This document shows, piece by piece, positions 3,650 to 46,613 of a stretch of DNA of 47,572 nucleotides. This DNA is from a virus. The notes under the pieces were generated by a model that saw only the letters and a program-made list of their open reading frames with translations, was not told the origin of the DNA and ran no database searches. The stretch lies in the IMG/VR virus record IMGVR_UViG_3300008262_000117, positions 1 to 47,572 of that record; one strand, 5' to 3'. The translations under genes were made by a program, and so were the position numbers. How positions within the stretch are numbered: position 1 is the stretch's first letter; each line of letters starts with the position of its first letter.

Positions 3650-3728
3650 GGTGGCTCCTAAAGGTAAAAGGGGTTTAAAAAATTTAAGGTGAGTCTATAG
3701 TTTATCGCGAAAAAGTAAAGGCGATGAA

Positions 3729-3881
3729 TTACTTGACTTTATTCCAGCCAGAGTGTTGTCCTGCGCATCCTTGTTTAGGACAACGAGGACGACCATGGCC
3801 GTCATCATACTCACGAGGACGTCCACAATATGGACACTTGTCACGCAGATTTTCAGGAAGCTTCTCAGGGGTTGGTCTCAT
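3729..3881 (-). CDS. zinc-ribbon microprotein, 50 aa
   Basis: The ORF encodes CPYCG (C16, C19), an Arg/Gly linker and CPKQGC (C34, C39) before a HSGWNKVK ending, a compact four-cysteine zinc ribbon. Its ribosome-binding leader AGGAGCCAC is almost identical to that of the reductase just downstream, which suggests co-expression at similar levels. It overlaps the end of the upstream DUF4406-like gene by 17 bases. Function unknown; a nucleic-acid or protein contact role is plausible for such a fold. Confidence 0.75.
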   Translation of the reverse strand: MRPTPEKLPENLRDKCPYCGRPREYDDGHGRPRCPKQGCAGQHSGWNKVK

Positions 3882-5061: not shown

Positions 5062-5091
5062 AAAACAATCCTACAGGTGTAGGGTGTGGTT

Positions 5092-5745
5092 ATGGAACAC
5101 TACAACGTAGTAATTGCAACGCCTGGTTCTGATATGAAGGCGGATTTTGTAAAGAGCCTGATAGAGACTACAAAATGGCTTAATCACAAAGGTTTGAAGT
5201 ATCACTTTGTATCTCAATATTCGAGCTTTGTTCCAAGCGCCAGAGAGAACACTGCAACCGACTCTTACGGGGCGGATTGGCAAGCGGTGGCTTTTGGGGG
5301 TGGAGCCTTTACCTATGAAAAGATTATTTGGATAGATTCAGACATCTCTTGGTCTGTGAAAGATTTTGAGTTAATTTTGAAAAGCGATAAGGACATCATC
5401 TCTGGAATGATGGCTATAGGTCGAGATGGTCGTATAGGGGCTATGAGGGTTAATGAAGCAGGACATCCTGTCTCTCTAAACGCTGTGGAGTTTCTAGTAG
5501 AGGGTGAGCCTGTCAGGGTTGATGGGGTAGGTTTTGGATTCTTGGGGGTCAAGTCTGGGGTCTTTGAGAAGATGGCTAGGCCATGGTTCAAGATTCGAGA
5601 GACTGGGGTTGAAGGGGCAGACTTTCCTGTCATGTTGGGGGAGGACTACTCTTGGTGTGTTGGGGCTAAAGAGGCTGGGTTCCAGATTTGGCTACATCCC
5701 TTGGTCAGGGTTGAGCATCATAAGGCAGTCATTTTTACTGTCTAA
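5092..5745 (+). CDS. GT-A fold glycosyltransferase-like protein
   Basis: The 217-residue product starts with a Rossmann-like strand (YNVVIATPGSDMKADFV), has the metal-binding DxD motif as WIDSDISW (about 81-88) and a later GEDYSWCVGAKEAGF segment (about 181-195) typical of the acceptor and general-base region of GT2-like enzymes. It would transfer a sugar from a nucleotide-sugar to an unknown acceptor, for example phage DNA bases, virion protein or host wall polymer. The start could be GTG 5086 or ATG 5092; ATG 5092 is chosen because AGGG sits 7 bases upstream. It is isolated between the leftward operon and the repeat region. Confidence 0.8.
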   Translation: MEHYNVVIATPGSDMKADFVKSLIETTKWLNHKGLKYHFVSQYSSFVPSARENTATDSYGADWQAVAFGGGAFTYEKIIWIDSDISWSVKDFELILKSDKDIISGMMAIGRDGRIGAMRVNEAGHPVSLNAVEFLVEGEPVRVDGVGFGFLGVKSGVFEKMARPWFKIRETGVEGADFPVMLGEDYSWCVGAKEAGFQIWLHPLVRVEHHKAVIFTV

Positions 5746-6257
5746 ATGTCGACATTTGAGGCAGATTTCTCTGCATGGTCGATTATTCAAAATCTAGTGT
5801 TTGGTGTATAGTTTTTAGAGTTACTATCATCAAAAAAGTTCAGCCTTTTTTGTAAAATCCTGATAGTAGTTTATTTGGGCTGTAAAAATAACTATCAAGA
5901 AAAAAGCTAAAAAACTTTACAAACTGCGATAGTTATTTTTTTCATTGTAAAACATACTATCAAGAAAAATAAAAAGTTTTTTAAAAAATCGTGATAGTAC
6001 AGTTTTTTGCAGGAAGGTCTCTACTATCAAAGAAAATTCAAAAACTTTTTAAAAATCGTGATAGTAAAAATAAAAACTATACTTAATATTTTAATATTCA
6101 ACCTATTTCCTATACGCGTATGAGAAAAAAGTTTCACCCCCTAAGAAAATGGGTTGAGAATTCGAATATTTAAAACTAGTATTAGGTTGTATTTAAAAAT
6201 AGTGTATGGTAGTATCTAAGTCCCAGATTGGGGTGGAAATTGGTGGAAGGATTTAGG
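5746..6257. other. gene-free AT-rich region containing the ACTATCA repeat array
   Basis: About 510 bases without a credible gene. The left half holds four spaced repeat units (listed separately). The right half (6070-6250) is AT-rich with TATACGCGTATGAG at 6113-6126 and ends at the promoter of the next gene. No tRNA is visible. Such a repeat-rich AT stretch between transcription units is a usual place for a replication origin or partition site, but this is inference. Confidence 0.7.
5823..6065. repeat. array of four 43-45 bp units with ACTATCA/TGATAGT ends
   Basis: Units lie at 5823-5867, 5891-5933, 5956-5998 and 6023-6065. Each begins ACTATCA and ends TGATAGT (second unit: CGATAGT), so the 7-base ends are inverted repeats. 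The interiors are A-rich then T-rich then A-rich and similar but not identical. Spacers are 22-24 bp, giving a period of 65-68 bp. TGTAAAA precedes units two and three. The arrangement suggests binding of a dimeric protein at regular helical positions, as in iterons, centromere-like sites or multi-operators. Confidence 0.85.
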
Positions 6258-23173: not shown

Positions 23174-23755
23174 ATGACAACGATGGTAGCAGTGCAAGGA
23201 CCTACTTGGGCAGTCGTTGGCTGCGACAGCCAAGTTACTGAAGACAATAAAATTTTTATCCTTCCTAAAGATAATCCGAAGATAATGAGAAATGGTCCTT
23301 TCTTGTTTGGTGCTGCGGGCGATATGCGTGCTATCAACTTACTTGCTTATCAGTTCAAGCCACCCGTTCCACCCGTGAACTGTTCTGGAAGCAGACTAGA
23401 CAAATTCGTTTCAAGTAAATTCATACCTGAGTTGAAATCATTGTTTGATGAAGTTCAATACGGGGAAAAGGGAAACCAAGAGTCAGAAATCCTCTGCGTT
23501 GTGCACGGACGCATCTACGAGATTGGCTCTGGTTACGATTGGTGCCGTGACCAAAGCGGAATTTATGCGTTTGGTTCTGGAGGAGAATACGCTCTGGGTT
23601 CGCTGCATAGTCAGCTTGAGGGTAAAAAATTTACGCTAACTGCTGTGCGTGCTGCGGTTCGGCGCTCGCTAGAGGTTGCAACAAGGCTTGACCCTAATAC
23701 TGGTGGTCAGTTGCTCATCTCTGTTCAGCAAGATGAGTGCCGTCAGCCAGGCTAA
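23174..23755 (+). CDS. proteasome/HslV-like Ntn-hydrolase family protein, 193 aa
   Basis: The start MTTMVAVQGPTWAVVGCDSQ corresponds to the TT-x-VA...G-D strand pair of proteasome beta and HslV subunits, in which an N-terminal Thr (here T2 or T3) is the nucleophile. It continues with KIMRNGPFLFGAAGDMRA, the usual G-AG-D/S turn, and GSGGEYALGSL near residue 135, equivalent to the conserved G-S-G-x2-A loop. A phage member might degrade or process proteins, or be a scaffold only. The paired ATPase is not adjacent; the MoxR ATPase at 15039 is a different class. Confidence 0.82.
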   Translation: MTTMVAVQGPTWAVVGCDSQVTEDNKIFILPKDNPKIMRNGPFLFGAAGDMRAINLLAYQFKPPVPPVNCSGSRLDKFVSSKFIPELKSLFDEVQYGEKGNQESEILCVVHGRIYEIGSGYDWCRDQSGIYAFGSGGEYALGSLHSQLEGKKFTLTAVRAAVRRSLEVATRLDPNTGGQLLISVQQDECRQPG

Positions 23756-30817: not shown

Positions 30818-32602
30818 GTGGCGGTATTCAAAAAAGAAGAACCAGCACAAGAACCAGTCGTCTCTGAAATTAAGAAACCACGTTCTAGTCGCCGTACGCG
30901 TACCACTCGTTCCCGTCAAGTTGTTGCGCCAAAAACTACTCCGCAATCAACAGGAATTCTTTCAGTCTTTAGTTCACCGAATTCTCCAGCTCCACTTTCA
31001 TACAACACTCCTCGCTCTATGACTGCAGCAGCAGTCCAAGTCAAAGTAAATGACAAAGGCGAGTTCGAGCAATTTAAAAATCGTCGTTCCGCTTCTTCCT
31101 CTGCATGGCAAGCAGAAGCTTGGGAATATTACGATGCAATTGGAGAAATCAAATACGCATTTAACTTAGTTGCCTCTGTTGTATCTCGTATTCGTATTTA
31201 TGCAGCAGCAATTGATGATCCTTCACAAGCTCCAGTTTCTGTAAATGAATCTCGAGTAGTTGAAGAACGTCTTGCATCTGCAGCAGAGCGTGCTCTAGAT
31301 CGTCTAAACTCTGCATATGGCGGTCAAGCAGGTCTTCTTAAAGATGCAGCTCTCAATCTTTCAGTCGCTGGCGAGTGCTACTTGGTACAAATGCCAGCTC
31401 GCACAGGAAGTGGTGTTCCTGAGTCTTGGGACATTCGTTCTGTTGACGAAGTAGTAACAGATGCTCGTGGTGGATTTAATGTTATTGGTCGCCGCGAACA
31501 AGGTGCAGGACAAGGTGGCGGTTCTGCTTTTGGAGTAAGCAAACTTAATAAGAATGCATTCGTAGGACGCATCTGGCGTTCACATCCTCGTTATTCCGAC
31601 GAAGCTGATTCATCACTTCGTGGTTTGCTTGATATGTGTGCTGAACTTCTTCTCCTCAACAGAACATTCCGTGCAACTGCACGTTCTCGTCTCAATGCAG
31701 GAGCACTTTATCTTCCAGACGGACTTTCTGTTGCTGCACAAGCAGACCCTAACTATCCATACGATTCTGAAGACGGAATGGGAGCGGGCTTCACAGCTGA
31801 AGAAGCAGAAGACGAATTCGAAGAACAACTTATCGATGCGATGACAACTCCGATTCGCGATGAAGAATCTGCGAGCGCTGTTGTTCCTCTCATCATTCGT
31901 GGTCCTGCAGAACTTGGCGACAAGATTAAGCAGTTCAAGTTTGAGCGTTCCTTTGACCCATCACTTGCAGAACGTTCTGACCGTGTACTAGAGCGCATCC
32001 TTCAGGGACTAGATGTTCCAAAGGACATCGTTACAGGTCTTGCAAATGTTAAGTATTCAAATGCAATGCAAATTGATGAATCACTTTACAAGGCACACAT
32101 TGAGCCATTGATGCTTTTGATTTCAGATGCTCTAACAGTTGTTTACCTACGTCCATATTTGATGGCTAATGGTTTCACTGAGTCTGAAGTAAATCGAATT
32201 GTTGTTTGGTATGACCCATCAGCAGTTTCTACACGCAATGACCGTGCAGCAGATGCTGATTCAGGATTTGACCGTATGGCAATCTCAGGAGACACATGGC
32301 GTCGTGCTCATGGCTTCTCAGACCAAGATGCACCTACTCCAACAGAAGTTGCACTTCGACTTCTACAAGAGCGTGGAGCAATTACTCCAGAACTTACAGA
32401 AGCAATGCTCAAAGCAGTAGCGCCTGAAGTTATGCAAGCAGTTCAGCAAGTAAGTCAAGAAAATTCCGTTGCACCAATGTCTCCAGAGTTACAAACTCTT
32501 CTTGACGGTGCAATTGGTCAAGCTCAACCAACCGAAACGACACCAGCGACTGAAACACCCACCGAGGAGGCAGTACCCCCAACTGAGGAGGTTCAGCAAT
32601 AA
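30818..32602 (+). CDS. portal protein, 594 aa
   Basis: The protein has a disordered basic N-terminus (SSRRTRTTRSRQ), a portal-like core (WEYYDAIGEIKYAFNLVASVVSRIRIYAA, about 104-132; later FRATARSRLNAGALYLPDGL and ILQGLDVPKDIVTG) and a Pro/Thr/Glu tail. Length and position at the head of the capsid genes fit a siphovirus portal, the dodecameric ring at the DNA entry vertex. GTG 30818 follows GTGAAGGG. Its stop overlaps the next gene as TAATG. Confidence 0.85.
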   Translation: MAVFKKEEPAQEPVVSEIKKPRSSRRTRTTRSRQVVAPKTTPQSTGILSVFSSPNSPAPLSYNTPRSMTAAAVQVKVNDKGEFEQFKNRRSASSSAWQAEAWEYYDAIGEIKYAFNLVASVVSRIRIYAAAIDDPSQAPVSVNESRVVEERLASAAERALDRLNSAYGGQAGLLKDAALNLSVAGECYLVQMPARTGSGVPESWDIRSVDEVVTDARGGFNVIGRREQGAGQGGGSAFGVSKLNKNAFVGRIWRSHPRYSDEADSSLRGLLDMCAELLLLNRTFRATARSRLNAGALYLPDGLSVAAQADPNYPYDSEDGMGAGFTAEEAEDEFEEQLIDAMTTPIRDEESASAVVPLIIRGPAELGDKIKQFKFERSFDPSLAERSDRVLERILQGLDVPKDIVTGLANVKYSNAMQIDESLYKAHIEPLMLLISDALTVVYLRPYLMANGFTESEVNRIVVWYDPSAVSTRNDRAADADSGFDRMAISGDTWRRAHGFSDQDAPTPTEVALRLLQERGAITPELTEAMLKAVAPEVMQAVQQVSQENSVAPMSPELQTLLDGAIGQAQPTETTPATETPTEEAVPPTEEVQQ

Positions 32603-33939
32603 TGGCTGAAGAAACTTGCCCCCCTGCAACACAAGATGTTGCTCTTAATCTTGATAACCGTAAAAAAGCAATTGATACTGCAATGTACGGTCCACTTAAT
32701 TCAACAGAACCAAACGATGAGTATTGGCAAGCACTTGCTGACGAATGGCAAGTAGACGCTGAGACAGCAAAGAAACAACGTTGTGGTAACTGTGCTGTCT
32801 TTATTCAGACTCCAGAGATGCTGGACTGTATTGCTAACGGACTAACAGGGGAGCAGAATGATGAATATGATTCAATTCAAGAAGCTGGTGACCTCGGATA
32901 TTGCGAAGCGTTTGATTTTAAGTGCGCTAGTGCTAGGACTTGCCGCGCTTGGGTTTCTGGTGGTCCTGTAACAGCTGCTGCTAAAAAGAAGATTGCACAA
33001 ACACCTGCACCAAAGAAAGACCGTGTCAAAGGTTCTGACAAGAATTCAAAAGGCTCAGCTTCAGGTGGAAAGAAAATCACTTTTACTCCAGCAATTGAAT
33101 CGTCTCTTCGCAAGAAGGTAGAAGAGCACAATGAGAAAGCTCCAAAGGGTCGCAAGACTTCTGTCTCAACCCTAAAAGCTGTATATCGCCGTGGTGCTGG
33201 TGCCTACTCTGTTTCACATCGTCCAGGTATGACTCGTAACCAATGGGCAATGGGTCGTGTAAATGCATTCTTGCGCCTACTTAAGTCTGGCAAGCCAAAG
33301 AACTCTGCATACAAAGCAGATAACGATTTACTACCAGCAGCACACCCACGTTCTTCAAAGAAGAACGCTTCTACAATTATCGCTTCAGGTTTAATTCCAG
33401 AAGAACAAGATTTAGCAGATGCGCTTATTGCAATTACTCGAAAGCATGGACCATTTGATCAAGATGGTGATGGAGTGTGGGCTGGTTACACACCTGCTTA
33501 TGAGAACGAAGTTAAAGACATCGGAGTTAAGTGTTCAAACTGCGTATTCTTCCAAGGCCCAAATAAGTGCCAGATTATCTCCCTTGAGGTTGAAGCAGAT
33601 GGCAAATGCCGCTTTGCTGTTCTACCAGAGGGTGCAGTGTCAGGTTATGACGTTCCTGTTCGCGATGAAGAAGACCTTGAGCTTTTACTTGCATCCGCTG
33701 AAGCAGATGCAGAACTTAATGTTGAGTTGAAGTCCGAGTTAGATTATGAAACTCCAGAACAAGCAATCTTTGCTATGACAGAATTTGCAGGTCTAGGTTA
33801 TGAAGCAGAGTCTGCATTCCGTGCATCTTGGCTTCGTGCAGTTCGCAACAATGAAAACCCATTTAAGCGAGCAGCTGTTCTTGCAACAATGACATACGAC
33901 AGCATGGATTCCGACCTTCTGCCGAAAAGGAAGAGCTAG
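32602..33939 (+). CDS. Cys-rich head-associated protein, 445 aa
   Basis: Two cysteine clusters are visible: CGNCAVFI...C...LGYCEAFDFKCASARTCRAW (about 61-114) and KCSNCVFF...KCQI...GKCRF (about 310-340), both in the style of small HiPIP-like folds seen in phage head proteins. Between them the block RRGAGAYSVSHRPGMTRNQWAMGRVNAFLRL...DNDLLPAAHPRSSKK (about 194-255) resembles a domain found in algal-virus and phage proteins (DUF5824/5872-like, uncertain). The DxLLP.xHPRS ending recurs in the next protein. Confidence 0.7.
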   Translation: MAEETCPPATQDVALNLDNRKKAIDTAMYGPLNSTEPNDEYWQALADEWQVDAETAKKQRCGNCAVFIQTPEMLDCIANGLTGEQNDEYDSIQEAGDLGYCEAFDFKCASARTCRAWVSGGPVTAAAKKKIAQTPAPKKDRVKGSDKNSKGSASGGKKITFTPAIESSLRKKVEEHNEKAPKGRKTSVSTLKAVYRRGAGAYSVSHRPGMTRNQWAMGRVNAFLRLLKSGKPKNSAYKADNDLLPAAHPRSSKKNASTIIASGLIPEEQDLADALIAITRKHGPFDQDGDGVWAGYTPAYENEVKDIGVKCSNCVFFQGPNKCQIISLEVEADGKCRFAVLPEGAVSGYDVPVRDEEDLELLLASAEADAELNVELKSELDYETPEQAIFAMTEFAGLGYEAESAFRASWLRAVRNNENPFKRAAVLATMTYDSMDSDLLPKRKS

Positions 33940-33941: not shown

Positions 33942-36900
33942 ATGGCCAAGTATTCAAAGACACCTAAGCAGCAAGCTGCTATTGCTATTGCAAAGAAGAA
34001 AGTTAAGACTCTTTCTCTAGAACAACAGAATGAAAGAATCCTAGAAGCAGGTTTTGACATAGTTAAATCTGCAAACACTAAATTCTCTGGTTCAAGACTT
34101 ATTACTCGTAGAGCCGCTAAGTCTGTTATGACTCGTTGCTTATCTAAGTATGAGAACGAAACTTATTCGCTGCGCCGTATGCGCACTTTAAAAGAGCTTA
34201 ATGGTTATATTCAACTTGCTCAGTACAACAAGGTTTTTTCCGTCTCTCCTGAAAATACAGACTTACTTCCTATTTCACACCCACGTTCAACTCGCAAGCA
34301 TGAGCTCAGCACTGCAGAGGTAATGAAGCACCGTGCTCGTTGGATTATTGATGACCCAAATATTCAAGACGACACTGTTCGTTCAATTCTTTCTTCTGCT
34401 TTAACAGCACATCCAGCTTCACCTGAGTATGAATACTCTATTGCTCGCTTGCAATCAATGCCTCAAGGCTCTGTGCCTCAGTATGCACTTCTTGCTGCTC
34501 TAGGAGATGGAAACTCTCCTGCAGCCCGTCGTGCTCGTGCTATGCGTCAGCGCCGTGACCGTAAGGGTCGCTTTGCTGAAATGGGTGGCGGTCTACGTGC
34601 ACTTATTCGTCGTATTAGTGGAGCAGTTCAATCTCTTAGTGGTCGTGCTGTAGCAACTGATGAAGGTAGCGATACCTTCGATATGGAATTACCAAATGGT
34701 GATTTAGTTCGCGTCCCTGCAAAGTCTGCTGAAGGTGTTAAGGCAATTCTTAAGTCTGCTCAGGGTCCAGATGGATACAGCAAGACTGCAGCAAAGGTAA
34801 AAACTGGTGACCCAGTTATCGAAGAAGCTGATCTTGTAAAGATTGATGCACCTGCTGGATTTAGTAAAGATGAGAGCTGGTCTCCAAGTGACGTTGATAA
34901 AGAGTATTACGGAACCAAGATTGACCTTGGAACTAAGTACACAGATGATGCATACGATGTTATTAAAATTTCTACACCTAATGCTGCTGCAAAAGATAAG
35001 TTTGAAGCAGCGCAGCAACGCGAGGGTGAAGGACAGAATGTTGTTACTGAAGGAGCAGGAAAGAATGGTTCATTAGACCCAAATCTTCCTGTTTACTTTG
35101 TATCTCGTCGTGGTGAAGATGACAGCAAGCCTTTTGCTGTTGCACAGCGTTGGTCTGATGTTCAAGATTACATTTCACAAGACGAACCTAATTTTGAGAA
35201 GGGCGAACTTCCAAATCCAGCAAAGATGCTAGATGAAGGAGGAGAAGAACCAACTCCAGATACTCCAGAAGAAACTCCTGCATCAGAAGTTCAGGGTGAA
35301 TTAATTCCTAAGGTTTCAAAGAAGAACCTTAAGAAGAATATGAAAGAGTATAAGAAGAATCTAAAGGACTATGAAGAAAACGGTGGGCTATTCCCACTTG
35401 ACCCAAGTAAGGACCACATTCTTCTTCCTGATGGTTCTGTAGTTGACGCTGAAACTGGAGAGTTAGAACGCGATGCGTCTGGACAAGCTCCTACAGAAGA
35501 GCCAGCAGTAAAAGCAAAATTAGATGTAGGACCAAAATTAAATCTTCCTGAACAAATAAAAGATAGCGGTAAAAAACCAGCTGAGCCAACTCCTGGTTAC
35601 TACAACGTAGACCGCGGTGAATACACACCTGAAGGCCCTATTGATGGACAAGAAGCTTCTGACTTTACAGATGACCCAGCAGAGCTTGCACAGAAGTTTG
35701 ATACTCCAACTCTTGAGAAATCTCTAGAAGATGGTGTTAAGGGAACAGAAAAATCTCCTGCAACTGGTTATGGAACTTTGCCATTTGAAGATGGAGATGA
35801 AATTGTTCCAGCAGAAGCAATTTACAACGCTCTTAAAGAGCAGGGTGAAGATGCTGATGCAATTCTTGATGGTATTTATGGAAAGAAAGATGCAACTCCA
35901 GAAGTTTCTGATGAAGTTAAAGATGAACTTGGTAAAGACTTACCAGAAGTGCCAGAAATGGAAGGCGGAGACCCAACAGAGCTTCCTACACTTCTTGAAG
36001 GTTTGTCTGACGATGAGAAGGATAACTACGCCAAGACTGGTGAGTATAAGCAATATCTTCCAAAGAATGACACCTTTGATGTTCCAGAAGATTACGCAGA
36101 GCTTTCTCCAGAAGCATTTGATAAAGACCAATACGTAATTCCTGAAGATGCACCTGAAGGATTTAATTACGACCCTGTTGATATTGCTAATTACTACGAC
36201 ACGGAAGATTTGAAGGGCGAGTTGCGTCGTGCTCTTGAGCCAGGAAATGAAATGCCTGGTTATGGAATGCTTGGCACACAAACCGACGATGGTGAAGAGT
36301 ATTCAGCGTATGTTCCAGGCGAAGCAATTCGTGATGCGCTGCAATTACAAGGTGAAGACACCAATGCTTTGACCAAAGAAATCTATGATGAAGGTTTCGC
36401 TGGTCAAGAAGAAGACGCACTGACTCCTGAGCAAATTAATGACGCTCTAGAAGGAGAAGCACCTGATACAGAAGAAATCACACCAGAACCTGCCCAAGAA
36501 GCGCCTACCGAAACCACGGAACAAGCTCCGTCGGATGAAAAGGGACCCGAAGCCGTTGACGGAGTTGCAGTTGGAGAACCAACAGGACCAGCAAAGTTAA
36601 AGGCTAAAACTACTGAACTTAAAGCAGGAGATGTCACAACAAATGACTTCTTCACAATTGAGTCTATAGAACCTTCTGAGTTCCCAGGTAAGTCATGGGT
36701 TACTGGTTACTATCCAGGTCACGTCTCACAAAAAACTAAGTTGTGGAACAACGACACTGATATCTCTGTATATAGAAATATTGATGCTCCTACAAAGGGT
36801 GACTTGCCTGTGCTTTCAAAGCCAAAGGCAAAAGAGTATGACCCTGAAGGAAAGGTTTACAAGAACCCTGAAGGAGTTTGGGTTCCTAAAGATGCTGCTG

Positions 36901-39900
36901 CACAAAAACAATATCTAGCAGATTTTGAAAAATACAACGAAGAACTTGCTCAAGCTAAAGAAATGTGGTCTGCTCCTGAAGGATTAGAAGAGTGGGTTTC
37001 TGAATCTGAAGCTCCTGTTTACACACCAAGCAAACCTGTCGGTGTTGTTGGGGTTGGAGCAACTGAAGTAAAACCAGGAGACATTGCCTTCAAGAAAGAA
37101 GGAAAGAATGACTTCTACGAGTATTTCATTGTCCAAGATGTAACAACTGATGAAACTGGTAATGCTGTCGTTACAGGTTACTATCCAGGTCATCAGTCTC
37201 AAACAAAGACTTGGAAGGGCACCACTCCTATCGAAGTAATTCGTGGTGCATCTGATTTACCAGAACCAGGCAAGAAGCCAGCACTCGAGCGTCCAAAGAA
37301 GGATGACCCTGCATACAAAGAGAAGTATGCAGAGTTCAATGCAGCAAAGAAAGAGTCTGCTGCAACATTTACTCCTCCAATTGATGTAGATGCACTTCCA
37401 CCTAAGCCAAAGAAGGTCTCACGCCCAACACCTCCTGCATTTATGGGAGATAAGCTCAAGGCAATTGCTGCTGAAGCAAATGGTGACCCAGTTAAATTTA
37501 AAGAACTTCTTGCTAATGAAGAAGTAGTTCATCTTGACTTTGAGAGCACTGGAGGATTTACATCTCCAAGCCCAATTCAAGTTTCAATGACCAAGGTTAA
37601 AAATGGTGAAATCATTGAAGAGAAGACTCTCTTCATGAACCCAGAACAACCACTTGACTCTTTCTATACTGACAAAGACCCTTCAGAAGTTCTTAAAGAC
37701 TCAGATGGAAACCCAATCTCTGATGAGTTCTTGTCTAAGCAGATGTCGCAAGCAGATGCATTTAAAGAAATCTCTGACTTCCTTGGTGCAGACCCAATTG
37801 TTTCTGCACACAACATGCCATTTGATGGAGAAATCCTTCGTCGCAAGATGGCCGAGTATGGACTTGATTACAAGCCAGCTGGCGAGATTGACACACTCTC
37901 ACTTGCTCGCAAGGTTATTAATGGAAGCGCAGGAGACCACAAGCTTGAGGCTGTAGCAAATCGTTATGGACTTGCTGAGCCAAACACTGATTGGCACGAT
38001 GCTTCTGTTGACGTTGCTGTATTGCCTGGAATTCTTAACAATCTCTTGGATGAGATGGCTGTTACTAAGTCTGGTATCGATGTTCTTGACCTTGAGAAGT
38101 CTTCTGCAGATTATGACAAGGCAAAAGCAGAGTACGACGCATACAAGTCTGGAAAGAGCAAAGCAGACTCCGAACTTGTTATGTCAAAGACTTTTGCAGA
38201 TGGTATGGCTGGAAAAGATGTTCCAGAAACCGATGCTCTTGTCAAGGCTATGCCAAAAGACAAGCCAACTTCAGACGAAGTTTCACCATCTACTTCTGCA
38301 AAGCCAACCGAACTTTCAGATGGAGATTTCCAAGTCGAATCAGTCTTGGGCGGAAACGTATCCAACAACTGGGTATCTGACCCAGAGAACACAACAAATG
38401 TTGGAGCAATTGCTGTTGAAGAGTGGCAACCAGGCGACTTCATCAAGGCAAAGCATGATGGATTCCACGAAATTATTTCTATTACCCCAATTGAAGGCGA
38501 CGACAAGCGTGTGCTTGTTAAGCGCAGACTTCTTGCAAATGGAAAAGAGTATGAATCTGCTTGGGTTAAGTATCAAGCTTACGAAGTATGGCGTCGCAAC
38601 GGTGAGCCAGAAGCTGTTCCTGCACCAGAGCCAGAATTAGAACAACCACAACTTGAGATTGATGAAGCTCCTGAAAAGGAAGCAAACGCTGGTAAGTGGA
38701 ATGATTACAACATTGCAGAAGGTACAGATGGTGTCTTCTACGCAGAAAATATTTCTGCTGCAGATGTTCAAGCTCTAAAGGCTGGAACTCTTACTCCTCC
38801 TAAGCTTCCATTCTTTGCACCTCTTGGTGGTGGAAACAATCAGGAAACTGGAGAAGGTTACTTCTTTACTTCAGATGGAAAGCGTTTCTGGGGCAAGTAC
38901 GGTGCTGGTGGTGCTCTTATCCGTCGTAAGAATGCAGATGGAGAGTATGAATACTTCCTTGCAAAGCGTTCTAGTTCTTTGTCACAAGGTGGCGGTAAGT
39001 GGGGAATCCCTGGAGGAGCCCATAAAGACCAAACAATTGCTAAGGCTCCTAATGCAACTGCAAAAGAAGAGTTTATGGAAGAAGTTGGCGGAGACATCTC
39101 TGCACTCGAGCCAATCTACGTTGACACAAACAAAGTCGGCGCTGAATGGGCATACGAAACTTCTGTCTTTGAAGTAGGACCAGATCAGTACAACGATCTT
39201 TCATCAAAGGATGGAGAGAACACTGCAACTGGTTGGTTCACTGGAGACCAAATTAAGAAAATGGCTGATGCAGAAATGCTTCATCCAGACTTTGCTGATT
39301 CTTTCTCAAATATTGTTAGCAACTTAGAAGATGAAGATGCTAAAACAGATAAGCCAATCCCAGAGCCTGAAGTTAACGTTGAAGATGTACAAGCAACATT
39401 TGATACTTCAAACTGGAAAAAGACGGGGTCTCAAGCTGGCTCTAATCAAGGTGCTTTCTATACAGACCCAGACACTGGTAACCAGTATTACGTTAAGAAG
39501 CCAAAGTCTGACAAGCATTTTGCTAATGAGGTTCTTGGTGGAGCACTCTATGAAGAAGCTGGAGTTAAGTTTGGTCGTGCATACAAAGGCATAGACAAAA
39601 ATGGAAACTCCGTTCTTGTTTCTCCACTAGTTGAAGGTTCAGATGCAGACTTTGGAAGCAAGAAGAGTGATTCAGATGTAAAGAAAAACGCTCAAGACGA
39701 TTTTGCTGTAGATGCTTGGTTAGGTAACTATGATGTTATCGGACTTGAGTATGACAATGTTCTAACCGACAAAGATGGCAATGTAACTCGTATTGATGCT
39801 GGAGGCTCTCTTCTATTCCGTGCACAAGGCGGAACTGATAAGGAGTTTGGTCCAGAGGCAACTCAAGTTGATTCGATGCGTAATCCAAAAGAAAACCCAC

Positions 39901-41984
39901 AAGCTTCAGAAATCTTTGGAGATATGACAGATGAGCAAATTGCAGAGTCTGTAAAGAAGGTTCAAGCTGTAAGTGAAGAAAAAATTGATGAACTTGTTGA
40001 TGCAGCGTTCCCAGATGATGCAGAAACTGCTGAACAGCTTAAGACAACTCTTAAAGCACGTCGTCAATATCTTATTGACCGTTTCTTAGGTGGACAACCA
40101 GCTGAAGAAACATCAGAGACACCAGAGAAGCCATCTGTTGATTCAAACACAACGGTTCTCGACACTTCAGGTGACTTAGAAGCACAGTTAGCTGATGCTC
40201 AAGCTGCTGGAAAGAAAGTAGCTTTTAAGTACAACGGAAAAGAAAGAGTTGTAACTCCAAAAGGAGTGTGGAAGAACCCACAGAATGGCAACATCAACCT
40301 TTCAGCCATTGATGAAGAGGGTGTAAAGAAGAATTACACACTTTCTAAGTTTGAGCAGAGCGGTTCTACTGCTTCAGAAGCACCAGAGGCTGCTCCAACA
40401 CCTGAGAAGGAACTTCCACAAGCTCCAGAGGCTGCTCAGATTGATCCAGCAGAGAAGCAAAAGGTTCTTGATGAAGTCTCTGCTCTTGCAGAAAAACTTT
40501 TTGGTAATAAGGGTAAGACAAAAGACTTACTTGAATCTTTAAAGGGTCAAGATGGTGCTAACACAGACCTGATTGATTCAATTCTTGAAGATATAAACAC
40601 TCCATCTGCTCCTGCAGATGCAACTCCAGAAGAAAAGATTCAATCTGACCTTTCGCAAGCTCTAACTCCAGATGAAGACGCTGCTCCAGAAGATGAAGTA
40701 GCGCCAATTGACCCTGTAGCACTTGCAGAAGAATTAAAGAAGCCTTTAGACCCAGATTTGATTTGGGCAAAGGTAAAAGATGAAAAGGGAATTTCTGTAC
40801 TTGAAAACGGTGACATTGTTGTTGCTGAGAATGTAACTCCAGCTGGCTCAACTATTTACACAATGGTTAAGCGCAACGCTGATAATACATTTAGTGTCTA
40901 TCACCGAATCAAAGGTAATGACGGAACTTCTAGAGTTAAAACTCTTGCAGGACGTTGGCACTCATACACTGCTCTCTCTAGCCGTATCGAGAACGAGAAG
41001 TGGAAAGCAAAGATAACTCCAAGTAAAGTTATCTCAAAATCTAAGCCAGAAACTCCAGGAACTATTGCACCTTCTGCAATCCCTACAAAGAAGGGTGCTT
41101 ACGTATCTGCTGATGGCAAGACTCCAATTAAGGTTGGAATGATTGTCAAAGATACCAAGACTGGAAAGATTGGAAAGGTTGTATCTCTTAAGGATGAGCT
41201 TGTTACATCTAAGAGCAAATCAAACCCACAGGGTTACACCTATACAGATGTTGCAAAAGTCCAATGGGAAGATGGAAAGAAGAATTGGAAGGTTTCAACC
41301 TACCTAGATATTCAAGATACTTCAGGAGTAAAGCCAGATAAACCAGAAGATGATGGACCTACTGGTGGCGGTGGAGGAACACCTACAACCCCTAAGACTC
41401 CATCCAGTCCTGCGCCAGTAAACAGCACAGAGCCTAAAGTTGAGTTGCCTAAATACGAAGGCGCGGATTTAGCAGGTGCTACTTCAATTAAAGATGTAGA
41501 AGCAAAAGCAGTAGATAAAAATTCTATTGGTCATTTAGCTTCATATGGTGCAAACGATTACAGCGATTACAAGCAGTTCTTGCAAGGTGAACTTATTAAA
41601 GACCCTAACTCTAAGAACATGGCTCCTGGCATTTTGGTTCAAAACGCTAACCCAAATGATTCAGACCAAGATTTAACTAGCTATGGAGTTATCTCAAAGC
41701 AAGATGCAAAGACTGGTGACATTGAGGTTTCATACTTTGATGGTCCTTTAGCTGGACAGACAAAATCTACAAAGTCAGACAAAATCTGGTCCCGTGAAAA
41801 GTTTATTACTCCAGAGCAAGCAAAAGAATTAGACATTGAAATTGACCAAACTCTATTTGATAAGTCAAAGGCTGCTGGAAAAGCTAAAGGTGAGTTATAC
41901 GCTAAACAACAAGCCGAAAAGCTAAAGAAAGCTCAGCAAGCTGCTGAAACTCTGTATCTCCTCACCCAAGTGTTCCTTCTTTAG
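33942..41984 (+). CDS. giant multidomain head protein: exonuclease, NUDIX and kinase-like domains, 2680 aa
   Basis: Domains in order: an N-terminal part with NTDLLPISHPRST (about 107-119) and a basic RRARAMRQRRDRKGRF; two copies of an acidic module around residues 600-650 and 765-815 (ATGYGTLPFEDG; MPGYGMLGTQTDDG); two copies of a VTGYYPGHxSQ module (about 920, 1077); a DEDDh exonuclease (about 1190-1375: HLDFEST, SAHNMPFDGEIL, DTLSLARK, HDASVDVAVL); a NUDIX domain (about 1650-1795: AKEEFMEEVGG, with Lys replacing the usual Arg); a kinase-like domain (about 1823-2047: DAWLGNYD, TRIDAGGSLLFRAQG); and further beta modules. It probably enters the host with the DNA or stays in the head. The C-terminus appears frame-broken. 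Confidence 0.85.
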   Translation: MAKYSKTPKQQAAIAIAKKKVKTLSLEQQNERILEAGFDIVKSANTKFSGSRLITRRAAKSVMTRCLSKYENETYSLRRMRTLKELNGYIQLAQYNKVFSVSPENTDLLPISHPRSTRKHELSTAEVMKHRARWIIDDPNIQDDTVRSILSSALTAHPASPEYEYSIARLQSMPQGSVPQYALLAALGDGNSPAARRARAMRQRRDRKGRFAEMGGGLRALIRRISGAVQSLSGRAVATDEGSDTFDMELPNGDLVRVPAKSAEGVKAILKSAQGPDGYSKTAAKVKTGDPVIEEADLVKIDAPAGFSKDESWSPSDVDKEYYGTKIDLGTKYTDDAYDVIKISTPNAAAKDKFEAAQQREGEGQNVVTEGAGKNGSLDPNLPVYFVSRRGEDDSKPFAVAQRWSDVQDYISQDEPNFEKGELPNPAKMLDEGGEEPTPDTPEETPASEVQGELIPKVSKKNLKKNMKEYKKNLKDYEENGGLFPLDPSKDHILLPDGSVVDAETGELERDASGQAPTEEPAVKAKLDVGPKLNLPEQIKDSGKKPAEPTPGYYNVDRGEYTPEGPIDGQEASDFTDDPAELAQKFDTPTLEKSLEDGVKGTEKSPATGYGTLPFEDGDEIVPAEAIYNALKEQGEDADAILDGIYGKKDATPEVSDEVKDELGKDLPEVPEMEGGDPTELPTLLEGLSDDEKDNYAKTGEYKQYLPKNDTFDVPEDYAELSPEAFDKDQYVIPEDAPEGFNYDPVDIANYYDTEDLKGELRRALEPGNEMPGYGMLGTQTDDGEEYSAYVPGEAIRDALQLQGEDTNALTKEIYDEGFAGQEEDALTPEQINDALEGEAPDTEEITPEPAQEAPTETTEQAPSDEKGPEAVDGVAVGEPTGPAKLKAKTTELKAGDVTTNDFFTIESIEPSEFPGKSWVTGYYPGHVSQKTKLWNNDTDISVYRNIDAPTKGDLPVLSKPKAKEYDPEGKVYKNPEGVWVPKDAAAQKQYLADFEKYNEELAQAKEMWSAPEGLEEWVSESEAPVYTPSKPVGVVGVGATEVKPGDIAFKKEGKNDFYEYFIVQDVTTDETGNAVVTGYYPGHQSQTKTWKGTTPIEVIRGASDLPEPGKKPALERPKKDDPAYKEKYAEFNAAKKESAATFTPPIDVDALPPKPKKVSRPTPPAFMGDKLKAIAAEANGDPVKFKELLANEEVVHLDFESTGGFTSPSPIQVSMTKVKNGEIIEEKTLFMNPEQPLDSFYTDKDPSEVLKDSDGNPISDEFLSKQMSQADAFKEISDFLGADPIVSAHNMPFDGEILRRKMAEYGLDYKPAGEIDTLSLARKVINGSAGDHKLEAVANRYGLAEPNTDWHDASVDVAVLPGILNNLLDEMAVTKSGIDVLDLEKSSADYDKAKAEYDAYKSGKSKADSELVMSKTFADGMAGKDVPETDALVKAMPKDKPTSDEVSPSTSAKPTELSDGDFQVESVLGGNVSNNWVSDPENTTNVGAIAVEEWQPGDFIKAKHDGFHEIISITPIEGDDKRVLVKRRLLANGKEYESAWVKYQAYEVWRRNGEPEAVPAPEPELEQPQLEIDEAPEKEANAGKWNDYNIAEGTDGVFYAENISAADVQALKAGTLTPPKLPFFAPLGGGNNQETGEGYFFTSDGKRFWGKYGAGGALIRRKNADGEYEYFLAKRSSSLSQGGGKWGIPGGAHKDQTIAKAPNATAKEEFMEEVGGDISALEPIYVDTNKVGAEWAYETSVFEVGPDQYNDLSSKDGENTATGWFTGDQIKKMADAEMLHPDFADSFSNIVSNLEDEDAKTDKPIPEPEVNVEDVQATFDTSNWKKTGSQAGSNQGAFYTDPDTGNQYYVKKPKSDKHFANEVLGGALYEEAGVKFGRAYKGIDKNGNSVLVSPLVEGSDADFGSKKSDSDVKKNAQDDFAVDAWLGNYDVIGLEYDNVLTDKDGNVTRIDAGGSLLFRAQGGTDKEFGPEATQVDSMRNPKENPQASEIFGDMTDEQIAESVKKVQAVSEEKIDELVDAAFPDDAETAEQLKTTLKARRQYLIDRFLGGQPAEETSETPEKPSVDSNTTVLDTSGDLEAQLADAQAAGKKVAFKYNGKERVVTPKGVWKNPQNGNINLSAIDEEGVKKNYTLSKFEQSGSTASEAPEAAPTPEKELPQAPEAAQIDPAEKQKVLDEVSALAEKLFGNKGKTKDLLESLKGQDGANTDLIDSILEDINTPSAPADATPEEKIQSDLSQALTPDEDAAPEDEVAPIDPVALAEELKKPLDPDLIWAKVKDEKGISVLENGDIVVAENVTPAGSTIYTMVKRNADNTFSVYHRIKGNDGTSRVKTLAGRWHSYTALSSRIENEKWKAKITPSKVISKSKPETPGTIAPSAIPTKKGAYVSADGKTPIKVGMIVKDTKTGKIGKVVSLKDELVTSKSKSNPQGYTYTDVAKVQWEDGKKNWKVSTYLDIQDTSGVKPDKPEDDGPTGGGGGTPTTPKTPSSPAPVNSTEPKVELPKYEGADLAGATSIKDVEAKAVDKNSIGHLASYGANDYSDYKQFLQGELIKDPNSKNMAPGILVQNANPNDSDQDLTSYGVISKQDAKTGDIEVSYFDGPLAGQTKSTKSDKIWSREKFITPEQAKELDIEIDQTLFDKSKAAGKAKGELYAKQQAEKLKKAQQAAETLYLLTQVFLL

Positions 41985-41998: not shown

Positions 41999-43276
41999 AT
42001 GGCAAATAATGACAACCCAGCGGAAGCTGCTAACGGTTCAACTACTTTGCTTGACTCGGATTCAATTGAGGATTTAGAAGTTCACGTTGGTATGGTTACT
42101 GACAAAGATGGTCAAAAGAAAATTCGTCTGCAATTTACTCTAACAAGCTGGGCTGGAAAGCAAGTAACAGCTAAAGCAGACTCAGACCCAAATATTACAA
42201 AGACCAAAGCTTTAAGACTTGATAAATGGAAAAAGCAACCAGACGGTTCTGTTGTTTGGCAAGACACTTGGGATACCAGCACTGTTGATTCAAACAAGAA
42301 CGGTGTGACTTTCGAAGGACCTGCTGGAAAGGGAACTTTCCTTCTTCACCGTGCATCTAAGTCAATAGATGACACCGAAGTCGATTTCTTTAAGTATCAC
42401 AGTAGTAGTCCATACGCTGTTTCATTTCACAACAAAGCAGAGATTTATCTGCCAGCAGATGCAACTCCTGAAGATGTTGCAGAAGCTTTAAACTCTTTAG
42501 GTGGTATTTCTCAGGTTCGTCCTGCCCTTGAGTCAGATGTTCGAGGTGTTATTGAAAACAAAATGATTTGGCTTCTTGGTGCAGCAACTGATGGCAAAAA
42601 GAACTACGCTGGAGAGCTTCGTCAAAAGACTCTAGACATTATCAAAGAAGAGTATGGATTTACTGCAGATGATGTTGAAATTGTTGCAGACCCTCTAGCT
42701 AGAGGACGTATTAATTATTATATGCCAGAGGCTGCTGTAGAAAAGCTTATGGAGAAGACAGGATTCTCTCCACACATTGTTCATAACTGGAAGGGTGGAG
42801 ACCAAACCAACACTGTTGATTGGTTCTACGATGTTATTACATCTGGAGGAATCTACGCAACTGCTACTCGTTGGATGAATGGAATTAACAAGAGTGGAAT
42901 GTCCTCCTCTTCTGATATTGATGCCAACGGCGGAAATTACGTTTTTGCCTCTCCATCATCAAAAGGCTCGAGCACTTCTTCAAATCTAGCTTTCTACTTT
43001 AACTCGAAGAGTGTGCTTCGTCGTCTTGACTACTACAAGAACAACTCTGATAAGTATGGGCAGCTTCAATCTGACTCGGAAGACATTGTTGAATCTTTAA
43101 GCAATAACTACGGCGAGTTGATGTTTAAAAAGAACCTCTCTTGGGCAGACTTGTCCTCCATATCAATGCCAACAGCTATTAGAGAAAAGCTGATTGAAAG
43201 ATTGATGTCTGAAGGAAAGACTGATTTAGCAGACATTGTTGCTGGTAAAAAGAAAAAGAAAGGGGCTAAGAAATAA
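41999..43276 (+). CDS. hypothetical protein, 425 aa, probably the continuation of the giant protein
   Basis: ATG 41999 has no ribosome-binding site. The same frame is open upstream from 41948 and encodes SVSPHPSVPSLVDALK leading directly into this protein, which suggests that it was originally joined to the 2680-residue ORF and separated by a one-base loss. It has a beta-rich N-terminal domain (LEVHVGMVTDKDGQKKIRLQFTL) and a long mixed C-terminal part (WLLGAATDGKKNYAGELRQ; WADLSSISMPTAIREKLIERLM). Family unknown. Its stop overlaps the next gene as TAATG. Confidence 0.75.
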   Translation: MANNDNPAEAANGSTTLLDSDSIEDLEVHVGMVTDKDGQKKIRLQFTLTSWAGKQVTAKADSDPNITKTKALRLDKWKKQPDGSVVWQDTWDTSTVDSNKNGVTFEGPAGKGTFLLHRASKSIDDTEVDFFKYHSSSPYAVSFHNKAEIYLPADATPEDVAEALNSLGGISQVRPALESDVRGVIENKMIWLLGAATDGKKNYAGELRQKTLDIIKEEYGFTADDVEIVADPLARGRINYYMPEAAVEKLMEKTGFSPHIVHNWKGGDQTNTVDWFYDVITSGGIYATATRWMNGINKSGMSSSSDIDANGGNYVFASPSSKGSSTSSNLAFYFNSKSVLRRLDYYKNNSDKYGQLQSDSEDIVESLSNNYGELMFKKNLSWADLSSISMPTAIREKLIERLMSEGKTDLADIVAGKKKKKGAKK

Positions 43277-43883: not shown

Positions 43884-46613
43884 ATGCAATATCTAGGTAG
43901 AAATGATAGCTACGTTCTATTTTCGAACGAAAACTTAGCAGCAGTTATTGACGAGTCTACAAACACTGTTGTTCGAGTAGACAGTAGCTCAGTGTTGCTT
44001 GCTTCTGCAGATTGGGATACTTATGCTGAAAAGCCAGTTGCCTCTTCTGTTGAACTTGCAAATGCTGCTGTAACTGACCTAGATATTAAAGTTTTAAGTA
44101 ATGGCGATAGCAGCAACATGTACACAATTCCTGATGCTGTTATTGCAGAAGCTAAAAGAGGTCTTGCTTGGAGACGAGAAGAAAAACGAGGAGGGACACC
44201 AGTTGGGCTTAATACCGCTCGCACGCTTGCTGGCGGCGGCCAAATCGGCATCGCAAAAATCCGCCACATTGCAAAGTACTTCCCAAGACATGAAGTTGAC
44301 AAAAAGGGCAAGGGTTATAAACCGGGTCAAGCGAATTACCCCAGCAACGGTCGCATTGCTTGGGCTCTTTGGGGTGGAGACGCGGGCAAGAGGTGGGCGT
44401 CAGCAATAGTAGAACGCGACAATAAAAAGCGTTCAAACAATTCAGTTGTTGCATCAATTGATGAGTTCATGCCTATTCAAAGAATTGATTACACAGCATT
44501 CACTCCGTCAGATTATGAACCAGATTTTTATATTCGTATTCGTTTAGACGGTTCTGGAATTGATCGTTTATATAAAGTAGATATTGAAGGTTACTGCACC
44601 GTTTGGGATGACGGCTGCTGGGAAGACTTGGGTCACATCGATCACGACTTCATCACATATGACAAATCGCTTGATGACCCATATGACCAAGTTCAAAAAA
44701 TCCATACTCCTGTAGACCGTGAGTCTGCAGTAAAAATCTCTGCAATGCTGGATAACAATCCTTTTAATCCAGTATCGGTGCAGATGATTGATTTTGATGA
44801 ATCAGATTTAATTGAAAGAGCAATCCCTGAAATTGACTGGAATTTCTTAGACCAATTATCTGAAGATGATGTTTACGAAGTAGATGAGTGGGATGATGGT
44901 CTTCTTGCTGTAGGTGCTCCAACTACTGAAGCTCCAACAAATCAAGACGGTGACTACACACCAGAAGAGCGTTCAGAGAAGGCTTCTCGACAAGTACGAG
45001 ACCAGCTTGGTAAATTTGCAAAAGCTGGAAGCACTGTCATTGTTGGAAACGACCCTAAATACACAGGAAAAATTCTTTCTATTAATTCCGATACTCAGGA
45101 AGCTAACGTAGAGTTCCCAGGTGGAAGTGTTGTTGCTGTTCCTGCAAATCAGACTCAGTTAGCAGAAGATTATCAACCACTTCCTGTTCAAGGTTTTCCT
45201 AGTTTTGAATTAGACACCTCTGGAATTCTTGGAGAGCCTCGAGTTCCTATTGATGAGCCAACAGCAAAACTTCCAGGACGTTTACCACCTCTTACAGTAG
45301 ACAGTCTTCAAGTCATGCTTACTGACTGGACAAGCTGGGTTGCAGACCAAAGAGTTACTCCTGAATACACAGGGCAACCTGTAAGTGCACCAGCACCAGC
45401 TGCTGGAACTTCTCCTGCTGTAGATACACGACTTGACCCAAACACTGTTCTTGGTAAGTACTACACAGGTTCATTTAATCCAGACGGCACTCCTAAGCCA
45501 GGTTGGAATCCTGCTACTACAGAAAATGTTTACAACAACCCACTACTTCGTGATTGGTTGGATAAAAAATATAACAAGACAGCTGACCCAGAAACTGCTT
45601 ATCACCGAGATGGTTGGTATCGACCAACCCGTACATACGGAGATCTTGGTCCTAAAGTAGAAGGCAAAAAGTCTGCAAAAGATGTAAAAAAGATTAGTAC
45701 AGATGACTACATGAAGAAGTTTGACCCAGATCTTGAGATGTCAATTATTTCTTCAGCTGAAGGTAAAAAGCCTAACTACGAAATCACTCCTGAAAAAACA
45801 GACGTTGCTCCTATGTACATTGCAATTGTCGCTGAGGATGACCCAGCTGCAGTTATGGAGTTAGTTGCACTAGTTCCTGCAGGTGTAGACACAACCCAAC
45901 CAGCAACATTTAAACGTCGTAATCGTAAATGGGAACGCGATGAAAGAATTCTTGCTGACCTAAAAAGTCCAACACCTCCACCAACTATTGTTCTAAGCAC
46001 AGAACAACTTGCTGATGTTGTTTCTCAAATTGATGGTGGAATTGTTGCTTCTTTAAATGTAAACATTGCAATGGCTTTGAGTCTAAATCCAATCACTGCC
46101 GCTGGTGGTGCTGACCAAAACCGCGGTAATGCAGAAAAACTTCGTCGTTATTGGACAGTTGGCAAGGGCGGATTAAAGATTCGTTGGAACTCCCCAGGAG
46201 ACTGGACTCGTTGCCACCGTTATCTATCTAAGTATCTTGGTCCACGTTCTAAGGGCTACTGCGCACTACGTCATAAAGAGATGACTGGTATGTGGCCAGG
46301 AGATAAGCGCAATCCAGGTATGAAGAAGAAGTCTTTAGTTTCCAGTATTGAAGCACTTCGTTCTGAAGAGCAAATTATTGATTCATTTACTTTGACTGCT
46401 CGTGCTGAAGCCGCTAAAGCTAAATTTGCAGGTCGCGAAGGCGCTAAGCCAGTTGAGCACGGAGCAAAATTTGTAATACCTCTAGTTATTCCTGAAAATA
46501 AGGAATCTGGGGATGGTCGCATCTTTGATAAAGGTGTAATAGTTATGAGAGACCTACCTCTGCCACTACGAAAGGCTTGTTCGCAATGGGTTTATCCGTG
46601 GAGTTTCCGCTGA
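43884..46613 (+). CDS. fused head protein leading into the capsid maturation protease, frame-broken at 3' end, 909 aa
   Basis: Recognisable blocks: LAWRREEKRGGTPVGLNTAR...KIRHIAKYFPRHE..YPSNGRIAWALWGGDAGKRWA (about 93-177), a module seen in actinophage head proteins; a KAGSTVIVG beta module (about 376); RGNAEKLRRYWTVGKGGLKIRW..GDWTRCHRYLSKYLGPRSKGYCALRHKEMTG (about 750-802); and the start of a prohead-protease-like region FVIPLVIPENKESGDGRIFDKGVIVMRDLPLPL (about 862-895). After RDLPLPL the reading changes to RKACSQWVYPWSFR and stops. The natural continuation lies in the +1 frame from 46570. Confidence 0.8.
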   Translation: MQYLGRNDSYVLFSNENLAAVIDESTNTVVRVDSSSVLLASADWDTYAEKPVASSVELANAAVTDLDIKVLSNGDSSNMYTIPDAVIAEAKRGLAWRREEKRGGTPVGLNTARTLAGGGQIGIAKIRHIAKYFPRHEVDKKGKGYKPGQANYPSNGRIAWALWGGDAGKRWASAIVERDNKKRSNNSVVASIDEFMPIQRIDYTAFTPSDYEPDFYIRIRLDGSGIDRLYKVDIEGYCTVWDDGCWEDLGHIDHDFITYDKSLDDPYDQVQKIHTPVDRESAVKISAMLDNNPFNPVSVQMIDFDESDLIERAIPEIDWNFLDQLSEDDVYEVDEWDDGLLAVGAPTTEAPTNQDGDYTPEERSEKASRQVRDQLGKFAKAGSTVIVGNDPKYTGKILSINSDTQEANVEFPGGSVVAVPANQTQLAEDYQPLPVQGFPSFELDTSGILGEPRVPIDEPTAKLPGRLPPLTVDSLQVMLTDWTSWVADQRVTPEYTGQPVSAPAPAAGTSPAVDTRLDPNTVLGKYYTGSFNPDGTPKPGWNPATTENVYNNPLLRDWLDKKYNKTADPETAYHRDGWYRPTRTYGDLGPKVEGKKSAKDVKKISTDDYMKKFDPDLEMSIISSAEGKKPNYEITPEKTDVAPMYIAIVAEDDPAAVMELVALVPAGVDTTQPATFKRRNRKWERDERILADLKSPTPPPTIVLSTEQLADVVSQIDGGIVASLNVNIAMALSLNPITAAGGADQNRGNAEKLRRYWTVGKGGLKIRWNSPGDWTRCHRYLSKYLGPRSKGYCALRHKEMTGMWPGDKRNPGMKKKSLVSSIEALRSEEQIIDSFTLTARAEAAKAKFAGREGAKPVEHGAKFVIPLVIPENKESGDGRIFDKGVIVMRDLPLPLRKACSQWVYPWSFR

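What the first reader, a model, noticed from the sequence alone, without database searches (positions are those of the whole stretch)
33942..41984. A 2680-residue head-operon protein with exonuclease, NUDIX and kinase-like domains
A DEDDh exonuclease (HLDFEST ... HDASVDVAVL), a NUDIX domain with a Lys for the family Arg, and a kinase-like domain (DAWLGNYD ... TRIDAGG) are fused behind the portal and a Cys-rich protein, joined by acidic repeats and repeated VTGYYPGH modules. Such fusions recall polyvalent proteins that are injected with phage DNA to act against host defences or nucleotides, but the combination in a head operon is unusual.
Basis: partly seen in the sequence, partly recalled or inferred. 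Interest (0 to 1): 0.78.

Follow-up and report, generated by a model that had tools for sequence, protein, structure and literature searches.

The report
Giant multi-enzyme phage head-operon effector protein
A lake virus of bacteria encodes, right behind its DNA-entry portal gene, one enormous protein that strings together several enzymes (a DNA-cutting exonuclease, a NUDIX domain, a HipA-like kinase and a probable ADP-ribosylating end domain); it belongs to a large, little-described family whose enzymes are shuffled and swapped, and is probably carried in the virus particle to act on the host at the start of infection.

Summary
ORF 33942-41984 follows portal and a Cys-rich gene and carries an intact DEDDh exonuclease, a divergent NUDIX and a kinase. 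The 2680-aa length is a truncation. A 76-bp out-of-frame gap after 41948, absent from all four aligned relatives, splits a ~3136-aa protein whose C-terminus is ORF 41999-43276. At least 46 distinct complete relatives (median 3136 aa, up to 6091 aa) occur in environmental phages, with portal just upstream in 72 of 76 loci. They share a frame: a constant N-terminal region (containing a QxRDxxGRF tract also found in the next large head gene), a kinase, and in nearly all that reach that far a constant C-terminal domain. Between these, exonuclease, NUDIX, UvrD helicase, ART, WYL-like and SH3-like modules vary in presence and order. The kinase model (pLDDT 93) is closest to CtkA/HipA; the C-terminal model (pLDDT 91) weakly but specifically resembles the ADP-ribosyltransferase DarT. 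Between two phages about 98% identical over 23.6 kb, the kinase alone was replaced (dS 1.6 versus 0.01-0.18). Best reading: a head-packaged polyvalent effector with exchangeable enzyme cassettes. Packaging and injection are inferred; one distant relative is annotated as particle-associated. New variant of a known kind.

The parts
30818..32602 (+). portal protein gene
   Evidence: PHROG 776 portal, E 1e-108; a portal homologue lies upstream of the kinase ORF in 72/76 IMG/VR loci
32602..33939 (+). Cys-rich 445-aa protein; residues ~167-256 share the first part of the giant's N-terminal region
   Evidence: translation; profile built from giants only, E 5e-9
33942..41984 (+). 2680-aa ORF: truncated window copy of a ~3136-aa giant protein; in register with relatives up to 41948
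34041..34877 (+). constant N-terminal region (residues 34-312)
   Evidence: found in the giants with the N-terminus held
34548..34574 (+). QRRDRKGRF tract (QxRDxxG[RK]F), shared with the downstream head gene
35595..35903 (+). 'acidic' module copy 1
   Evidence: 144 copies in 75 giants
36093..36413 (+). 'acidic' module copy 2
36609..36827 (+). GYYPGH module 1 (SH3-like by inspection only)
37059..37298 (+). GYYPGH module 2
37509..38078 (+). DEDDh 3'-5' exonuclease domain
   Evidence: Pfam RNase_T 8e-12; PHROG pol exonuclease subunit 1.6e-23; catalytic residues 29/29
38412..38615 (+). third, divergent GYYPGH-type module
38847..39311 (+). NUDIX domain with divergent box
   Evidence: PDB 6uuf E 9e-10; Pfam NUDIX 0.0024, below cut-off; box alignment
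39342..40139 (+). HipA/CtkA/PI3K-type kinase domain
   Evidence: alignments; AF2 pLDDT 93.3; Foldseek CtkA 3akl E 4.9e-7
39249..40235 (+). segment replaced between window and L009 (kinase cassette)
   Evidence: 70-77% DNA identity versus ~98% overall; dS 1.59
40161..40385 (+). WYL-like module
   Evidence: window profile; Pfam WYL 8e-7 for copies in relative L015
41091..41300 (+). KOW/SH3-like module (assignment by inspection)
   Evidence: weak DUF2098 E 0.11
41948..41949 (+). junction at which 76 bp present in L007, L008, L009 and L011 are missing
41999..43276 (+). 425-aa ORF = C-terminal part of the giant in the shifted frame; ~42002-43228 matches the constant C-terminal (DarT-like) domain
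43884..46613 (+). next large head gene, itself cut short by a 134-bp gap at 46569/46570 (1401 aa in L009); carries QVRDQLGKF

Best explanation
It is a head-operon polyvalent effector protein of a tailed phage, probably of freshwater Actinobacteria, about 3136 aa when intact. Proposed mechanism: the constant N-terminal region brings the protein into the procapsid beside the portal (inferred). The protein leaves with the DNA at infection (inferred, by analogy with T4 Alt and phage polyvalent proteins). The enzymes then act in the cytoplasm: the HipA/CtkA-type kinase phosphorylates a host target, the DEDDh exonuclease and NUDIX domain process nucleic-acid ends or nucleotide-type molecules, and the C-terminal DarT-like domain ADP-ribosylates DNA or protein (domain identities shown to differing strength; substrates inferred). 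Modules are gained, lost, reordered and, for the kinase, replaced as a cassette by recombination (shown). This suits diversification against changing hosts (inferred).
For: Domains. Portal just upstream in 72/76 loci. Constant N- and C-terminal frame with variable middle in dozens of giants; Pfam over 29 giant pieces finds exonuclease, UvrD, NUDIX, ART, WYL and KTSC in varying sets, and one search shows a different order in L015. All modules under purifying selection (window versus L011 dN/dS 0.06-0.33). Kinase-only replacement in two lineages. The kinase-bearing protein of Yersinia phage fHe-Yen8-01 is annotated 'phage particle associated protein'. QxRDxxGRF shared with the downstream head gene. 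Published precedent: PMC5512222 and PMC9503650.
Against: No virion proteomics for this phage or its close relatives. The only particle annotation is for a distant protein sharing just the kinase, and I could not find its paper. No substrate evidence. DarT resemblance is weak by E-value (0.03). N-terminal targeting is a guess from shared sequence. The window copy is broken, and it cannot be told whether by assembly or in nature.
Confidence: 0.6

Rival explanations
1. A mainly structural inner-head or portal-associated protein (scaffold, core or ejection protein) whose enzyme modules are accessory or decayed.
For: Fixed place behind portal; N-terminal region shared with both neighbouring head genes; long acidic linkers; constant ends.
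Against: Catalytic residues invariant in 29/29 exonuclease copies and the three NUDIX Glu in 29/29; kinase active-site residues nearly invariant over 83 sequences; modules vary in presence and order, unlike a structural core.
Confidence: 0.15
2. A packaged nucleic-acid and nucleotide starter kit for host DNA breakdown, repair or nucleotide sanitation rather than a weapon against host defences.
For: DEDDh exonuclease, NUDIX, and UvrD helicase in relatives.
Against: The kinase and DarT-like end domain, not the nucleases, are the constant enzymes; several giants lack exonuclease and NUDIX; kinase cassettes are swapped, which a housekeeping role does not predict.
Confidence: 0.15
3. A late-expressed toxin released at lysis or acting in the infected cell, as in phage-borne polymorphic toxins, not injected.
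For: Polymorphic-toxin-like modularity; the kinase also occurs in bacterial contigs, sometimes with the same C-terminal domain; MuF-linked polymorphic toxins are known in temperate phages (PMC5576092, listed, not read).
Against: The position inside the head operon and shared head-protein segments favour packaging; I did not look for an immunity gene.
Confidence: 0.07

Closest known systems
Phage polyvalent proteins (Iyer et al. 2017, PMC5512222)
   Same: Large multi-domain proteins of portal-terminase phages combining unrelated enzyme domains; predicted to be packaged and injected.
   Different: Here a fixed N-terminal region, a HipA/CtkA-type kinase and a DarT-like C-terminus frame a variable middle; in the passages I read, the kinases described there are a different group lacking the C-terminal lobe, and this family is not described.
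Phage T4 Alt and head-fused ARTs/NUDIX (PMC9503650)
   Same: Head-linked ADP-ribosyltransferase and NUDIX domains thought to be injected.
   Different: Several enzymes in one chain; ART resemblance is to DarT, with VIP2/C3-type ART (PF03496) only in some relatives.
CtkA / HipA-like kinases
   Same: Closest solved fold (TMq 0.59, E 5e-7).
   Different: About 13-18% identity; no Pfam hit above cut-off; fused into phage giants.
DarT DNA ADP-ribosyltransferase
   Same: Only high-probability fold match of the C-terminal domain (prob 0.98); conserved Glu aligns with the C-terminal AE motif Glu of DarT.
   Different: E-value 0.03; an extra ~260-residue N-terminal half; not matched by Pfam DarT; no macrodomain antitoxin seen in the genes examined.
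Giant >4,400-aa genes of Microbacterium cluster EK phages and Burro (PMC7302621)
   Same: Actinophage giant proteins, predicted virion-associated and processed.
   Different: Those phages did not appear in my tblastn search with this protein.
RenU-type NUDIX (PDB 6uuf)
   Same: E 9e-10 over 155 residues, including a shared RFWG stretch before the box.
   Different: Different box residues; this one keeps the three Glu.

Membership tests
Polyvalent proteins (phage type) | two or more biochemically unrelated domains in one polypeptide | tested here: met
   exonuclease, NUDIX, kinase, DarT-like
Polyvalent proteins (phage type) | encoded with portal-terminase head genes | tested here: met
   portal upstream in window and in 72/76 loci
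Polyvalent proteins (phage type) | one of the domains used to define the class (MuF, Alt-type ART, Ard, DarA/B, N4 RNAP) | tested here: inconclusive
   none in the window protein by Pfam; PF03496 ART in some relatives; C-terminal domain only DarT-like
Polyvalent proteins (phage type) | packaged in the virion and injected | not testable with these tools
   one distant relative annotated as particle-associated
Iyer-type polyvalent kinases | loss of the C-terminal lobe | tested here: not met
   model has a helical C-terminal part, residues ~104-249
HipA/CtkA-like kinases | fold | tested here: met
   CtkA best PDB match, E 4.9e-7, prob 1.0
HipA/CtkA-like kinases | sequence membership in Pfam HipA families | tested here: not met
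   HipA_2 E 0.011 in 2 of 10 members only
DEDDh exonucleases (DnaQ type) | D-E-D-H-D catalytic residues | tested here: met
   29/29 distinct copies; RNase_T over cut-off
NUDIX hydrolases | GX5EX7REUXEEXGU box | tested here: not met
   Arg and GX5E Glu lost, three catalytic Glu kept; Pfam 18.3 bits versus cut-off 21.1
DarT / ART superfamily | ART fold | tested here: inconclusive
   Foldseek DarT prob 0.98 but E 0.03; hhalign 54%, P 1e-4, shuffled and reversed controls <1% and kinase control 2.7%
DarT / ART superfamily | catalytic Glu and NAD-binding residues | tested here: inconclusive
   near-invariant H279, R308, Y331, E390 in A5 numbering; only the Glu is aligned to DarT

The most novel reading that the evidence does not exclude
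A previously undescribed, widespread effector chassis packed in phage heads: a loading N-terminus, a swappable HipA/CtkA-like kinase cassette and a terminal DarT-type ADP-ribosyltransferase, with other enzymes plugged in, by which environmental actinophages exchange their first-strike enzymes between nearly identical genomes, as polymorphic toxins do.
Probability: 0.35. Interest if true: 0.8.

Novelty: new variant of a known kind. Interest (0 to 1): 0.62.

Why it matters
If the protein is packaged, these phages deliver a kinase, nucleases and an ADP-ribosyltransferase in the first moments of infection, in proteins of up to 6,091 residues. The kinase swap between otherwise ~98% identical phages marks which enzyme the host arms race most likely acts on, and gives a direct way to look for its host target. 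The kinase and C-terminal families match no Pfam family above cut-off and can now be recognised in many genomes.

Tried and rejected
Programmed frameshift joining 33942-41984 to 41999-43276: rejected, relatives are contiguous and the window lacks 76 bp; the junction has no microhomology, so neither repeat collapse nor slippage is indicated. Membership of the polyvalent kinases of Iyer et al.: rejected (C-lobe present). Canonical NUDIX box: rejected. PDB sequence search with the kinase profile: nothing significant. Nucleotide search of phage records: no match. PADLOC: only the exonuclease stretch matches candidate family PDC-S48. BLAST self-comparison for internal repeats returned only the full-length match; profiles were used instead. 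No paper found for fHe-Yen8-01. Plant-pathogen kinase homologues (Pseudomonas syringae group) were left out of the alignments.

Full report
WHAT IS THERE. The frame at 33942-41984 is open for 2680 codons. It follows the portal gene (30818-32602; PHROG portal E 1e-108) and a Cys-rich 445-aa gene (32602-33939). The window is a 47,572-base IMG/VR virus record, with no nucleotide relative among 50,697 phage records.

THE WINDOW COPY IS BROKEN. Contigs L007 and L008, 99.9-100% identical to the window outside this point, and relatives L009 and L011 all carry 76 bp that the window lacks after 41948. The whole protein is 3136 aa in L007, 3133 in L009 and 3114 in L011 (L008 runs off its contig). The window's ORF 41999-43276 is the rest of it in another frame, and ends at the stop of the intact gene. 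The last residues of the 2680-aa product (TLYLLTQVFLL) are an out-of-frame tail. The next large gene is also cut by a 134-bp gap (46569/46570), and L007 lacks 91 bp of the gene before the giant; none of the three junctions has microhomology. I cannot tell assembly error from real variation; the intact form is the rule.

DOMAINS. Exonuclease: RNase_T E 8e-12, PHROG polymerase-exonuclease subunit E 1.6e-23; the D, E, D, H, D residues are invariant in 29 of 29 distinct copies. NUDIX: best relative is RenU, E 9e-10; Pfam NUDIX is below cut-off. Its box reads PGGAHKD...KEEFMEEVGG. The family Arg is Glu here and variable in relatives, the Glu of GX5E is lost, and the three remaining Glu are invariant in 29/29. 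Kinase: the alignment keeps GSN.G, YVK, a helix Glu, DAWL.N(W/Y)D, DN and RxD.GG. The AlphaFold model has pLDDT 93.3; the best PDB matches are CtkA, a HipA-like kinase (E 4.9e-7), then PI3K and PI4K. Pfam sees only a weak HipA_2 match. C-terminal domain: the conserved H, R, Y and E pattern suggested an ADP-ribosyltransferase before any structure search. The model (pLDDT 91.5, pTM 0.92) then gave DarT as the only high-probability PDB match (prob 0.98, but E 0.03, TMt 0.44). Profile comparison with 23 DarT sequences gave 54% (P 1.2e-4) and put the conserved Glu on the Glu of the C-terminal AE motif of DarT; five shuffles and a reversal gave below 1% and the kinase profile 2.7%. I hold the DarT link at about 0.7.

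A FAMILY WITH A FIXED FRAME. Scanning IMG/VR with the kinase alignment gave 312 encoding stretches, 80 kept, plus 63 in bacterial genome contigs. Among the distinct complete kinase ORFs in viral loci (46, median 3136 aa, range 874-6091), 32 exceed 3000 aa and 5 exceed 5000 aa. Portal is within 6.5 kb upstream in 72 of 76 loci where the ORF start is held, median 1.25 kb; three of the other four lie close to contig or locus ends or on a short contig. Nearly all giants that reach that far have the constant N-terminal region and the constant C-terminal domain. Between them come variable sets of exonuclease (55 giants), NUDIX (49), WYL-like (95 copies in 64), GYYPGH modules and 'acidic' modules (144 copies in 75); counts include near-identical contigs. 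Pfam over 29 pieces adds UvrD helicase, PF03496 ART, KTSC and pentapeptide repeats. Order changes too: in the 6091-aa protein of L015 the kinase precedes the exonuclease, and helicase and two NUDIX domains follow. The annotated lake phage DSL-LC01, predicted to infect Actinomycetia (PMC10611076), has a 3289-aa version called 'hypothetical protein'. Gordonia phages Forza and GodonK have kinase proteins immediately behind portal. Enterobacterial and Pseudomonas phages carry the kinase in large proteins, two of which show a C-terminal PF03496 ART.

KINASE CASSETTE REPLACEMENT. Window and L009 are 98% identical over 23.6 kb, but fall to 70-77% over about 1 kb covering the kinase. dS is 1.59 in the kinase and 0.01-0.18 in the other segments, with dN/dS 0.14. 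That is import of a divergent, working allele, not fast decay. A second case is L040 versus L092: 99.4% identical outside, 82% in the kinase, where the L092 kinase is 92-93% identical to those of L039 and L043 while the rest of the protein is 82%. Chimeric assembly is the main caveat; the window form also occurs in L007 and L008, and the L009 form also in L012.

WHY PACKAGED AND INJECTED. The gene sits in the head operon; a profile made from giants only finds its N-terminal parts in the gene before it (E 5e-9) and in the next large head gene (QxRDxxGRF tract, domain E 2e-5); and the fHe-Yen8-01 protein is annotated 'phage particle associated protein'. Precedents are T4 Alt and phage polyvalent proteins (PMC5512222, PMC9503650). 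A >4,400-aa giant of Microbacterium phages is predicted to be virion-associated (PMC7302621). Packaging, ejection and substrates are inferences here.

VERDICT. New variant of the polyvalent-protein kind: the general idea is known, but I found no description of this kinase/DarT-like frame, its frequency in environmental phages, or the kinase cassette exchange in the papers searched.

Noticed in passing
window 46569-46570 (gene 43884-46613): A second non-triplet gap (134 bp relative to L009) truncates the next large head gene from 1401 to 909 aa.
   Followed up: partly
L007 3085-3086 versus window 33553-33643: L007 lacks 91 bp of the Cys-rich gene; near-identical contigs each carry different out-of-frame gaps, without microhomology, in this region.
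   Followed up: partly
L009/L023 and L026 (contig IMGVR_UViG_3300047564_003843, 160,704 bases): One contig holds two portal-plus-giant loci, one near each end, with giants of 3133 and 3137 aa whose kinase domains differ: chimera of two phages, or a real duplication.
   Followed up: no
L077, L078, L080: Giants with two separate kinase domains in one protein.
   Followed up: no
L102, L106, L108, L112, L114: Smaller (680-1328 aa) proteins in bacterial contigs join the kinase to the DarT-like C-terminal domain, a minimal form of the module.
   Followed up: partly
window 32602-33939: Cys-rich protein between portal and giant has two CxxC(x)nC-type clusters, possibly metal-binding.
   Followed up: no
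window 1601-3649 (-) and 23174-23755 (+): Ribonucleotide reductase (PHROG E 1e-139) and an HslV-type peptidase gene (E 4e-23).
   Followed up: no
L123, L130, L135 and similar: The kinase family also occurs in Pseudomonas syringae-group genomes, outside any recognised portal locus; left out of the analysis.
   Followed up: no
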